Shown here piece after piece: positions 59,546 to 64,000 of a stretch of 64,000 nucleotides of DNA. The stretch is from contig NZ_JACIJS010000008.1 in the NCBI RefSeq assembly GCF_014199445.1, positions 62,001 to 126,000 of the forward strand, read 5' to 3'. Numbering within the stretch: the stretch's first letter is position 1; each line of letters begins with the position of its first letter. The position numbers and the translations under genes are program-made. Under the pieces are notes generated by a model. That model was not told where the DNA came from and did no database searches. It saw only the letters and a list, made by a program, of their open reading frames with translations. Source of the DNA: Rubricella aquisinus (GTDB lineage: Bacteria; Pseudomonadota; Alphaproteobacteria; Rhodobacterales; Rhodobacteraceae).

Positions 59546-60514
59546 ATGAAAGTTGGATTTGTCGGGCTCGGGAATGTCGGGTCCAAACTTGCGGGCAGCC
59601 TTTTGCGCAATGGCCATGATCTGACCGTGTTCGATCTTGATACCGGGAAAGTGGCGGAATTCGTGGCCCTTGGGGCGAGGGAGGCCCGAGATGCCGCAGC
59701 GCTGATGCGCGACGCGGATGTGGTGATCACCTGTCTGCCCTCCCCCGCGATTTGTGCCGCGACCGTGACGGAGATGCTGCCAGAGGTTACGCCGGGCAAA
59801 ACATGGATGGAAATGTCCACCACCGATGACGGCGTGATGAAATCCCTTGCGGCACAGGTGCAGGCCGCGGGCGGCGCGGTGGTGGAATGCCCTGTCTCCG
59901 GCGGGTGCCACCGGGCGGCGACGGGCAATATCGCGATCTTTGCAGGCTGTGACCGGGACACGTTCGAGCGGGTGTTGCCATTGCTGACCACGCTGGGCCG
60001 GCGGGTGCTGCACACCGGGGAGATCGGCACCGCGTCCGTGCTGAAGGTGATGACCAACTACCTTGCCACCGCGAACCTGTTGTCGGTCTGCGAAGCGATG
60101 GTCACGATGAAGGCGGCGGGGATGGACCTTGCCACGACCTATGAGGCGATCAAGATTTCCTCCGGCACATCCTTTGTCCATGAAACCGAAGGGCAGGTGA
60201 TCCTGAATGGGTCGCGCGATATTTCCTTCACCATGGACCTTGTGAAAAAGGATATCGGGCTGTTCCAGAAAATCGCGGAAACCCATGACATCCCGCTGGA
60301 GATCAGCCCGCTTTTGGGCGCGATCTTTGACGATGGGATCGCGAAATACGGGGCCCGCGAATTGTCTCCCAACATCATCAAACGGCTGGAGCATGCGACG
60401 GGCCTGTCGATCACGGCGCCCGGTTTTCCGGCCCAGATGACCGATGATGAACCGGAGGAACCGGGCTATGAGGTCGTCCCGCCCGGTCGCATTCCCCCGG
60501 TCGCTGCGGAGTAA
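59546..60514 (+). CDS. NAD(P)-dependent beta-hydroxyacid dehydrogenase (HIBADH family)
   Basis: The protein has 322 residues. The N-terminal Rossmann motif is KVGFVGLGNVGSKLAGSLL. The substrate loop reads VECPVSGGCHRAATGNIAIFAG, and the catalytic lysine is in ASVLKVMTNYLATANLL. The family oxidises 3-hydroxyacids such as 3-hydroxyisobutyrate, tartronate semialdehyde or threonate; the actual substrate is not clear. AAGGAG precedes the ATG at 59546. It is the first of three plus-strand genes with a class II aldolase and a GBBH-like dioxygenase. A proline-rich 25-residue C-terminal tail is unusual. Confidence 0.88.
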   Translation: MKVGFVGLGNVGSKLAGSLLRNGHDLTVFDLDTGKVAEFVALGAREARDAAALMRDADVVITCLPSPAICAATVTEMLPEVTPGKTWMEMSTTDDGVMKSLAAQVQAAGGAVVECPVSGGCHRAATGNIAIFAGCDRDTFERVLPLLTTLGRRVLHTGEIGTASVLKVMTNYLATANLLSVCEAMVTMKAAGMDLATTYEAIKISSGTSFVHETEGQVILNGSRDISFTMDLVKKDIGLFQKIAETHDIPLEISPLLGAIFDDGIAKYGARELSPNIIKRLEHATGLSITAPGFPAQMTDDEPEEPGYEVVPPGRIPPVAAE

Positions 60515-60519
60515 GACGG

Positions 60520-61266
60520 ATGAACACACATGCCAATATCGCCCATTGGACGGAGCGGCAGGACCTCGCGGCGAGCTTTCGCTGGGCGGCGCGGCTTGGC
60601 CTGCATGAGGCGGTTGCCAATCATTTCAGCCTTGCGGTGAATGGGGACGGCACGCATTTCCTGATGAACCCCAATCAGGTGCATTTCAGCCTGATCCGCG
60701 CCTCAGAGCTTTTGCTGCTTGATGCGAATGACCCCAACGCGCTTGACCAACCCGACGCGCCCGATCCGACCGCATGGGGTCTGCATGGGTCGATCCATCG
60801 GCTCTGCCCCCATGCCCGCTGCGTGATGCACACGCATTCGATCTTTGCCACGGTATTGGCTTCGCTTGCGGACAGCACCTTGCCGCCGATTGACCAGAAC
60901 ACCGCCACATTCTTCAACCGCTATGTGATCGACGACCAGTTCGGCGGGCTTGCCTTCGAGGAGGAAGGGATACGCTGCGCCGGGCTGCTGTCCGATCCGA
61001 CAAAGAAGGTCATGATCATGGGCAATCATGGCGTGTTGGTGATCGGGCACTCCGTCGCGGACACGTTCAACCGGCTCTATTATTTCGAGCGCGCGGCAGA
61101 AACCTATATCCGCGCGCTCCAAACCGGGCTGCCCTTGCGCGTCTTGTCTGACGAGATTGCCGAAAAAACTGCAGCCGAGCTTGACGATTACCCCGGTCAG
61201 GCGGAGGCGCATCTTGCTGAAATTCGCCGCGTTCTGGACCGCGACGATCCCGATTACGCCAACTAG
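60520..61266 (+). CDS. Class II aldolase/adducin family protein
   Basis: The protein has 248 residues. The metal-site histidines are in CVMHTHSIFATVLASLAD (residues about 103-120) and in IMGNHGVLVIGHSVADTFNRLYYFERAAETYI. NHFSLAVNGDGTHFLMNPN near the N-terminus matches the substrate region of the family. Members cleave sugar phosphates or decarboxylate 3-oxo acids. It lies five bases after the dehydrogenase. The same pairing occurs in threonate-type pathways, but the kinase of those pathways is missing. Confidence 0.88.
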   Translation: MNTHANIAHWTERQDLAASFRWAARLGLHEAVANHFSLAVNGDGTHFLMNPNQVHFSLIRASELLLLDANDPNALDQPDAPDPTAWGLHGSIHRLCPHARCVMHTHSIFATVLASLADSTLPPIDQNTATFFNRYVIDDQFGGLAFEEEGIRCAGLLSDPTKKVMIMGNHGVLVIGHSVADTFNRLYYFERAAETYIRALQTGLPLRVLSDEIAEKTAAELDDYPGQAEAHLAEIRRVLDRDDPDYAN

Positions 61267-61278
61267 AAAAGGTGCGGC

Positions 61279-62421: not shown

Positions 62422-62427
62422 ACGGCG

Positions 62428-62457
62428 CGCCCGCCCTCAGATGCTGAAGGGCGGGCG
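62428..62457. other. Convergent hairpin between dioxygenase and aldehyde dehydrogenase genes
   Basis: CGCCCGCCCT (62428-62437) pairs with AGGGCGGGCG (62448-62457), with CAG/CTG extending the stem to 13 bp. It overlaps the last codons of the aldehyde dehydrogenase. No T run is present. It may block readthrough between the two convergent operons. Confidence 0.5.
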
Positions 62458-63867
62458 GACCTTGACCTCATAGAATTCCATCAGACCATGCGCGCCGCCT
62501 TCGCGCCCGTTGCCCGATTGCTTGAATCCGCCAAAGGGTGAGCCATAATCAGTCCCGCGCCCATTGATATGGATACCACCCGCCCGGAGCCGCCGCACCA
62601 CGCGCAGCGCCCGCGCCTCATCCCGCGTGGAGACATAGGCATCCAGCCCATAGGGCGTGTCATTGGCAATCGCGATTGCGTCTTCCTCTGTCTCAAAGGG
62701 GATCATCACCAGAACCGGGCCGAACACTTCCTGCCGGGCGATGGTCATGTCGTTGGTCACATCCGCGAACAGGGTCGGTTTGACGAACCAGCCCTGATTG
62801 ATCCCGTCTGGCCGCCCCGTGCCGCCAACAACCAGCCGCGCGCCCTCGTCAATGCCGGTCTGGATCAGGGTCTGCACGCGGTCATACTGGATTTGGTCAA
62901 AGAGCGGCCCGATATGGGAGCCTTCCTTTTGCGGATCACCCACGGCCTGCGCGCGGGCGGCCTCTGCCGCGAGGTCAACCGCGCGGTCATAGACGCTCCG
63001 CTCCACGAGCATCCGGGTCGGCGCGTTGCACGATTGGCCGGTGTTGGAGAAGCAGCCAAACACGCCCTCCGGCACCCGCGCCTCAAGATCAGCATCAGCA
63101 AAGATGATGTTGGGCGATTTGCCGCCCAGTTCCAGCGCCACGCGCTTCACGCTGTCCGCCGCGTCCTTGGTCACCAGCGCGCCTGCCCGCGTCGATCCGG
63201 TGAAGGACATCATCGCGATATCCGGGTGCCGGGACAGCGCCGCGCCGACCTCCGGCCCATCGCCATAGACAAGGTTGAACACACCCGGCGGGAACCCCGC
63301 CTCATGGATCATCTCAGCATAAAGCCGCGCGGAGAGCGGCGTATGCTCTGACGGTTTCAAAACGCATGTGTTGCCCGCCGCCAGCGCGGGAATGACCTTG
63401 AGCGAGATCTGGTTGACGGGCCAGTTCCAAGGCGTGATCAGCCCGCACACGCCGATTGGCTCATAGGTCAGAATATCGCCGTTCGGCAGCACCTTTTCTT
63501 CCTCCATCGCGTCGAATGCCGCGAGAAAGGCGCGCAAATGCCCGGTGCCCGACGCGGCCTGCTGTTCGCGCGACAGGGTGATCGGCGCGCCCATTTCTGC
63601 CGTGATGGCCTGCGCCATCTCCTCCTCCCGCGCCGCGCTGATCGTGAGCAGGCGGGCCAGCAGCGCGCGGCGCTCCGATTTCGGGGTCAGACCCCATGTC
63701 TCGAACGCGCGCTGCGCGGCGGCCACCGCGTCATCCACATCCGCCCGATTGCCCAGCGTGAGCGTCCCGATCTGCGCTTCGGTCGCCGGGTTGAGAATGG
63801 GCATGGTCGTGGTGCTGCGCGGCGTGGTCCACGCGCCGTTGATATAGAACTGGTCAAGCGTGATCAT
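62437..63867 (-). CDS. Aldehyde dehydrogenase family protein
   Basis: The protein has 476 residues with all ALDH motifs: [29 protein letters not shown] (cofactor region), [34 protein letters not shown] with the general-base glutamate, and the nucleophile in [14 protein letters not shown]. The C-terminal [13 protein letters not shown] is intact. It oxidises an aldehyde to the acid with NAD(P); the sequence is similar in style to betaine-aldehyde and other broad-range enzymes. The ATG overlaps the stop of the GMC gene upstream, so the two are coupled. Confidence 0.93.
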
Positions 63868-64000
63868 CGGTTGTCCTCCAGGATCAGGTCGGCGGCCCGT
63901 GCGGCCAGCATCATCGTGGGCGCATTGGTGTTGCCGGATGTTATGTTGGGAAAGGCGGAGGCATCCACAACCCGCAATCGCCCGACCCCATGCACCCTGA
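63864..64000 (-). CDS. GMC oxidoreductase (3' end only)
   Basis: Forty-four codons and a stop of a gene that continues past the window edge are visible. The end reads [20 protein letters not shown], then [22 protein letters not shown], the standard C-terminus of FAD-dependent glucose-methanol-choline oxidoreductases, including the Asn in GNTNAP near the active site. It would oxidise an alcohol to the aldehyde used by the coupled aldehyde dehydrogenase. The substrate is unknown; choline-like compounds are one possibility. Confidence 0.88.

What the first reader, a model, noticed from the sequence alone, without database searches (positions are those of the whole stretch)
59546..64000. Possible uncharacterised catabolic route around a GBBH-like dioxygenase
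A beta-hydroxyacid dehydrogenase, class II aldolase and 2-oxoglutarate dioxygenase form one operon. A GMC alcohol oxidase and aldehyde dehydrogenase form a convergent one. Together they could oxidise an alcohol to an acid, hydroxylate it and split the product. The set lacks the kinase of known threonate-type pathways and the PLP aldolase of carnitine synthesis. Roseobacters are known to use quaternary amines, so such a substrate is an attractive guess.
Basis: inference. Interest (0 to 1): 0.5.

Follow-up and report, generated by a model that had tools for sequence, protein, structure and literature searches.

The report
Conserved uncharacterised betaine-type catabolic gene cluster
Five neighbouring enzyme genes that many relatives of this bacterium keep together probably form an unstudied route for breaking down a betaine-like nutrient, with a dioxygenase that belongs to none of its named families.

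Summary
HIBDH, class II aldolase-like (ALD) and dioxygenase (DIOX) genes form one operon; ALDH and a GMC oxidase form a convergent one, with a LysR gene beyond the window. ALD lies beside DIOX in 28 of 30 group-1 loci; opposing ALDH is found in 25 and GMC in 26. Thirteen also hold an enolase-superfamily enzyme that the window lacks. DIOX sits in a supported clade apart from GBBH and TmpA anchors and scores far below the GBBH, TmpA and TMLD cut-offs.

The quaternary-amine guess is partly supported: DIOX-ALD pairs of sister group 2 lie near butyrobetaine/carnitine genes in 8 of 24 loci, but group 1 in 0 of 30, and group 1 has Glu at one cage position (25 of 25 rows).

A retro-aldol step is doubtful: ALD lacks the aldolase Glu, as do its nearest solved relatives, two of which (NovR, TqaM) oxidatively decarboxylate 2-hydroxy acids.

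My preferred reading is hydroxylation next to an acid group, then oxidative decarboxylation, a carboxylate counterpart of TmpA/TmpB. The chemistry is inferred and the substrate unknown. A published Arctic SAR11 island names the same five families.

The parts
59546..60514 (+). HIBDH: beta-hydroxyacid dehydrogenase (NAD_binding_2 + NAD_binding_11), 322 aa; below the cut-off of all 16 NCBIfam models listed
   Evidence: found in 26 of 30 group-1 loci
60520..61266 (+). ALD: class II aldolase/adducin-fold protein, 248 aa, NCBIfam NF005689 (PRK07490, 'hypothetical protein'); His89, 93, 104, 106, 170 invariant, Ala85 at the aldolase Glu position
   Evidence: (406.5 bits, cut-off 260)
61279..62421 (+). 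DIOX: Fe/2OG dioxygenase of the GBBH/TmpA fold, 380 aa; His192/Asp194/His333 and Arg345 kept; cage Glu167, Phe171, Phe184, Tyr351; anion-site stretch Ser279-Gln280-His281
   Evidence: (pLDDT 87.2)
62437..63867 (-). ALDH: aldehyde dehydrogenase, 476 aa, best models HpaE (438.8 bits) and betaine-aldehyde dehydrogenase (420.1), both below their cut-offs
63864..64000 (-). 3' end of the GMC oxidoreductase gene (choline-dehydrogenase-like, 456.4 bits vs cut-off 605); whole gene L006:6865-8448, beyond the window

Best explanation
A catabolic unit for a small zwitterion with an onium or amine group, ending at or near glycine betaine or another N-methylated glycine. GMC and ALDH oxidise the alcohol end to an acid (inferred from families). 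DIOX binds the cationic end in its cage and the acid at Asn181/Gln280/His281 and hydroxylates the carbon between them, as TmpA does on a phosphonate (inferred from the alignment). ALD is not an aldolase but an Fe(II)/O2 enzyme like TqaM and CloR/NovR that oxidatively decarboxylates the resulting 2-hydroxy acid, shortening it by one carbon (inferred from distant homology and residues). HIBDH, and the enolase-superfamily enzyme where present, act on the same hydroxy acid (oxidation; racemisation or elimination; inferred). LysR regulates the unit (inferred). Shown here: gene set, synteny, clade, residues. Not shown: any substrate or reaction.
For: Conserved cluster. DIOX clade with invariant Ser279, His281 and Fe/2OG residues, apart from a GBBH and a TmpA anchor. 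The alignment puts Gln280/His281 at TmpA N287/R288 (chain numbering minus 6), which PMC9296572 (passages) names as phosphonate ligands. ALD: the aldolase Glu position is Ala in 15 of 15 aligned rows and the His are kept; NovR and TqaM rank second and fourth among its solved relatives. TqaM turns 3-amino-2R-hydroxy-3-methylbutanoate into Aib by decarboxylative oxidation (PMC11880133 passages); CloR/NovR oxidatively decarboxylate a mandelate-type acid with a 3-His iron (PMC13111500 passages). Betaine context: butyrobetaine/carnitine genes of 50% identity or more near 8 of 24 group-2 loci against 0 of 20 control loci; Fisher p 0.005, or 0.010 with one of two near-identical Thioclava left out. In Paracoccus seriniphilus a glycine betaine ABC transporter lies a few kb before the group-1 cluster. 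An ALD relative lies among choline genes on a plasmid. DIOX-ALD lie about 3 kb from dmdA in L168.
Against: Group 1 itself has no carnitine gene of 50% identity or more in 30 loci, some short; one weak acyl-CoA dehydrogenase match (33%) in L063. The cage position is Glu in all 25 group-1 rows. ALD is missing beside DIOX in L071, L046, L052 and L167 and lies 1.4 kb off on the other strand in L166. ALD relatives are in 189 of 295 family genomes, of which 22 have a DIOX-clade gene, so ALD is not specific to this route. Loss of the aldolase Glu is shared by all four distinct relatives printed, also 3ocr (no named reaction) and 4xxf (deposited as fuculose-1-phosphate aldolase, ranked third), so it does not single out the oxygenases. 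The ALD structure prediction failed (pLDDT 40.3). The enolase-family enzyme is nearest galactonate-dehydratase models. Genome-level co-occurrence with carnitine dehydrogenase is not significant (19 of 22 vs 197 of 273, p 0.21).
Confidence: 0.28

Rival explanations
1. DIOX is a divergent gamma-butyrobetaine 3-hydroxylase: GMC/ALDH make butyrobetaine from its alcohol or aldehyde, DIOX makes carnitine, and the carnitine dehydrogenase and BKACE elsewhere in the genome finish it to glycine betaine. ALD and HIBDH handle a side product.
For: Same fold as BBOX1. The window genome has a carnitine dehydrogenase (60% over 323 aa) and BKACE (75%) pair in L152. Group-2 DIOX lies near butyrobetaine-CoA genes in several loci.
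Against: Below the GBBH cut-off (268 vs 414.75). The NN anion site of BBOX1 is Ser-Gln here. In group 2 the neighbouring CoA route would already make carnitine, so DIOX would be redundant (inference). ALD, the most constant partner, is unexplained.
Confidence: 0.2
2. One reading: DIOX makes a beta-hydroxy acid and ALD splits it by a metal-dependent retro-aldol reaction.
For: Class II aldolase fold family with kept His; ALD and DIOX share an operon; 4xxf, a close solved relative without the Glu, is deposited as an aldolase.
Against: Catalytic Glu (FucA E73, recalled) is Ala in 15 of 15 rows; relatives NovR and TqaM with the same change do O2 chemistry.
Confidence: 0.17
3. A sugar-acid or polyol route: GMC/ALDH oxidise a polyol, the enolase-superfamily enzyme dehydrates the acid, HIBDH and ALD process it, and DIOX removes or modifies a substituent.
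For: The enolase-superfamily enzyme is nearest galactonate-dehydratase models; GMC with this enzyme (and ALDH in some) occurs without DIOX and ALD on Leisingera, Ensifer and Caballeronia plasmids.
Against: The enolase gene was found in only 13 of 30 group-1 loci and not in the window's (short contigs included). DIOX belongs to a fold family whose known substrates are ammonio acids.
Confidence: 0.15

Closest known systems
TmpA/TmpB (2-trimethylaminoethylphosphonate to glycine betaine; TmpB step recalled)
   Same: DIOX is in the same fold family: TmpA is its best sequence match of known structure and among the top Foldseek matches
   Different: DIOX scores 270.8 vs cut-off 400; its partner is a class II aldolase-fold protein; anion site SQH instead of NNR
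Gamma-butyrobetaine dioxygenase (BBOX/GBBH)
   Same: TM-score 0.85 to BBOX1; Fe and Arg residues
   Different: 268 vs cut-off 414.75; cage Glu167 in group 1; separate clade
CloR/NovR and TqaM
   Same: Class II aldolase family; His ligands kept and no aldolase Glu in the printed alignments
   Different: Distant (profile E 9e-28 and 1e-24); no activity known for ALD
Arctic SAR11 'glycine betaine' island (PMC12421898, passages)
   Same: 3-hydroxyisobutyrate dehydrogenase, class II aldolase, BBOX, ALDH and choline dehydrogenase named in one island
   Different: 17-20 genes with carnitine dehydrogenase, BKACE and transporter; sequences not compared here

Membership tests
Gamma-butyrobetaine dioxygenase (TIGR02409) | score over the equivalog cut-off of 414.75 bits | tested here: not met
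   window 268 bits; seven other clade members 237.5-274.1; a Pseudomonas anchor scores 446.4
Gamma-butyrobetaine dioxygenase (TIGR02409) | all-aromatic cage for trimethylammonium | tested here: not met
   Glu at the first cage position in 25 of 25 group-1 rows; in group 2 Phe in 16 of 17 and Asp in one
TmpA (NF049936) | score over the equivalog cut-off of 400 bits | tested here: not met
   window 270.8 bits; seven other clade members 250.6-277.8; Labrys anchor 571.1
TmpA (NF049936) | TmpB (HD) partner gene beside it (recalled) | tested here: not met
   no HD-domain gene among the 12 genes of the window's locus scanned with Pfam
Trimethyllysine dioxygenase (TIGR02410) | score over the cut-off of 268.3 bits | tested here: not met
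   140 bits
Class II aldolase (FucA type) | catalytic Glu73 (recalled) | tested here: not met
   Ala85 in 15 of 15 rows
CloR/NovR/TqaM-type oxygenase | three His metal ligands without the aldolase Glu | tested here: met
   His104, His106, His170 invariant, Ala85; but 3ocr and 4xxf share this, so the feature is not diagnostic
CloR/NovR/TqaM-type oxygenase | Fe(II)/O2-dependent decarboxylation | not testable with these tools
   needs an enzyme assay
Threonate-type pathways (LtnD, OtnC, kinase) | equivalog dehydrogenase and decarboxylase plus kinase | tested here: not met
   138.7 vs 350 and 24.5 vs 250 bits; no kinase among the 12 scanned genes
NF005689 (PRK07490, function unnamed) | score over the cut-off of 260 bits | tested here: met
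   ALD 406.5 bits

The most novel reading that the evidence does not exclude
DIOX and ALD form an O2-dependent alpha-oxidation module: 2-hydroxylation of a 3-ammonio- (or sulfonio-) propionate and oxidative decarboxylation to glycine betaine or its analogue. It would be the carboxylate counterpart of TmpA/TmpB, with ALD founding a catabolic branch of the CloR/TqaM oxygenases that is common in this bacterial family and fed there by exchangeable oxygenases.
Probability: 0.2. Interest if true: 0.75.

Novelty: new variant of a known kind. Interest (0 to 1): 0.5.

Why it matters
Betaines and their sulfonium analogues are important nutrients in the sea (recalled). A conserved cluster with an unnamed dioxygenase clade, beside an 'aldolase' that may be an oxygenase and whose relatives occur in 189 of 295 sampled genomes of the family, marks a gap in that chemistry and names the two enzymes to test. 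If ALD is an oxygenase, many records called class II aldolase are misnamed.

Tried and rejected
Structure of ALD: the prediction from 20 close rows was useless (pLDDT 40.3), so no fold search was made with it. The neighbourhoods of 16 single HIBDH loci gave no clear pathway. Adenine deaminase and AMP nucleosidase lie near ALD in eight of 20 fetched ALD loci; I take this as conserved gene order. Genome-level association of DIOX (22 genomes, own included) with HIBDH (13 of 22 vs 124 of 273, p 0.27) and with carnitine dehydrogenase (19 of 22 vs 197 of 273, p 0.21) is not significant; with GMC relatives of 53% identity or more it is (9 of 22 vs 8 of 273, p 2e-7), and with ALD too (22 of 22 vs 167 of 273, p 4e-5). 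Related genomes are not independent, so these p values overstate. For ALD loci alone, carnitine genes are near 3 of 20, not significant against 0 of 20 (p 0.23). The control loci are 9.4-16 kb, shorter than most group-2 loci. Of the ten paper searches, 13, 57, 97 and 100 were aimed at such a cluster; their listings showed no description of it in this family, and the nearest is PMC12421898. A trimethyllysine route was dropped for the low TMLD score and the lack of a PLP enzyme among the scanned genes.

Rows dropped or merged: L040 and L041 are taken as the same places as L069 and L075 (equal contig lengths) and were left out; L057 and L060 come from one MAG, so 30 loci are not 30 genomes; L090 and L108 are near-identical Thioclava. 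One search counts matches above set identity limits (HIBDH 45, ALD 38, ALDH 55, GMC 45, enolase 45%). In one search, rows L157-L159 were read on the wrong strand; G491's row was redone as L168 and the other two dropped.
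Full report
What is there. HIBDH 59546-60514, ALD 60520-61266 and DIOX 61279-62421 are one plus-strand operon; ALDH 62437-63867 and a GMC gene that leaves the window are a convergent minus-strand operon with overlapping stop and start. A GcvA-like LysR gene is divergent from GMC at L006:8624-9532. Flanks are ordinary: MCP, a glutamyl/glutaminyl-type tRNA synthetase and Zincin_1 on one side, SfsA, M24 peptidase and RadC on the other. No transporter or kinase is in this set of 12 genes.

Conservation. In 295 genomes of the family (unnamed by the tool; Rhodobacteraceae in the GTDB sense, my inference from named relatives) DIOX relatives of 63-72% identity occur in 6 other genomes and of 49-58% in 15; one further genome, G006, has a broken piece. 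I call these groups 1 and 2. Over 30 group-1 loci ALD lies beside DIOX on the same strand in 28; the misses are L071, where it is absent, and L079, whose contig starts inside DIOX. HIBDH is found in 26, ALDH opposing in 25, GMC opposing in 26, and an enolase-superfamily enzyme in 13. Several misses are contig ends, but L037 and L038 lack ALDH, L042 lacks HIBDH, ALDH and GMC within a 7.8 kb contig, and L071 lacks ALD, ALDH and GMC. Over 24 group-2 loci, four of them from other families of the class (13 of 385 class genomes matched at 1e-60, four of these others at 43-55% identity), ALD lies beside DIOX in 20. One locus, L109, holds HIBDH, ALD, ALDH, enolase enzyme, GMC and LysR without DIOX, and L110 holds decayed DIOX and ALD pieces.

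Relation to known dioxygenases. The best sequence matches of known structure are TmpA and BBOX1, and the model (pLDDT 87.2) matches both. NCBIfam scores are far below the cut-offs for TmpA, GBBH and TMLD (seven more clade members). In a maximum-likelihood tree groups 1 and 2 with four class members form one side of a branch (100/100), apart from a 36-40% group and from two anchors, L082 that passes the GBBH cut-off and L083 that passes both the TmpA and the GBBH cut-off. The anchors sit on long branches and the root is a midpoint, so their order is unsure.

Active site. Fe ligands and the 2OG Arg are invariant in all 57 rows. The acid-binding site has Asn181 with Ser279, Gln280 (Gly in one group-2 row) and His281, where TmpA has Asn187, Asn286, Asn287 and Arg288 (chain numbering minus 6; roles of N187, N287 and R288 from PMC9296572 passages). 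The aromatic cage (BBOX1 Tyr177, Trp181, Tyr194, Tyr366, recalled) is mostly Phe/Phe/Tyr/Tyr in group 2 but Glu/Phe/Phe/Tyr in all 25 group-1 rows; the sister row L043 has Asp at the first place. An acid there may favour an N-H bearing cation over trimethylammonium, but L043 still lies next to butyrobetaine-CoA genes, so this is open.

ALD. It meets NF005689, a family without a named function. Its aligned rows keep His89, His93, His104, His106 and His170, and have Ala at the aldolase Glu position (the role of that Glu is recalled). Its solved relatives rank 3ocr (no named reaction), NovR, 4xxf (deposited as fuculose-1-phosphate aldolase), TqaM; by the printed alignments all four lack the Glu. 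The reported reactions of NovR and TqaM are oxidative decarboxylations of 2-hydroxy acids (passages). I hold an oxygenase reaction more likely than a retro-aldol one, but the similarity is distant and the missing Glu is not diagnostic.

Context. Group-2 pairs lie near butyrobetaine/carnitine genes of 50% identity or more (ACAD, CoA ligase, carnitinyl-CoA dehydratase, BKACE, carnitine dehydrogenase) in 8 of 24 loci (8 of 20, 0 of 4), against 0 of 20 loci fetched for HIBDH (16) or GMC (4) (Fisher p 0.005). Group 1 has none (0 of 30), though in Paracoccus seriniphilus a glycine betaine ABC transporter lies a few kb away. Some ALD relatives in genomes without a DIOX-clade gene lie beside other oxygenase-type genes: a GbcA-like Rieske protein with PanB-like genes (L116, L122), FA_hydroxylase (L111, L118, L121) or FA_desaturase (L123); three of 20 fetched ALD loci have carnitine genes (L119, L121, L126). 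I read this as one constant ALD step fed by exchangeable oxygenases; that is inference from 6 of 18 loci (L111-L128). GMC with the enolase enzyme also exists as a separate module. The window genome has a carnitine dehydrogenase and BKACE pair elsewhere, but such a dehydrogenase is in 216 of 295 family genomes.

Literature. An Arctic SAR11 island lists 3-hydroxyisobutyrate dehydrogenase, class II aldolase, two BBOX, ALDH and choline dehydrogenase with carnitine dehydrogenase, BKACE and a betaine transporter; [quoted passage not shown] I could not compare sequences.

Verdict. A real, conserved and unnamed catabolic cluster, most likely of betaine type. The substrate is not known; the mechanism I prefer is hydroxylation next to the acid group followed by oxidative decarboxylation, at about 0.28.

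Noticed in passing
L168:5243-11482: In a 1.9 Mb alphaproteobacterial genome DIOX (42%) and ALD (67%) lie about 3 kb from a DMSP demethylase gene (dmdA, 484 bits, cut-off 410) and beside a TRAP transporter, which would fit a DMSP-like substrate.
   Followed up: partly
L116, L122, L111, L118, L121, L123: ALD relatives beside Rieske, PanB-like, FA_hydroxylase or FA_desaturase genes in genomes without a DIOX-clade gene.
   Followed up: partly
L098:6347-13690: An ALD relative (56%) on a Pseudomonas aeruginosa plasmid lies among choline transporter, ALDH, choline dehydrogenase and a ring-hydroxylating oxygenase gene.
   Followed up: no
L110:5400-6310: Decayed DIOX and ALD pieces next to an intact HIBDH/ALDH/enolase/GMC/LysR set.
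   Followed up: no
L057, L060: Two copies of the cluster on different contigs of one Natronohydrobacter MAG, either two copies or mixed strains.
   Followed up: no
L152:6642-8500: Carnitine 3-dehydrogenase and BKACE genes elsewhere in the window's genome.
   Followed up: partly
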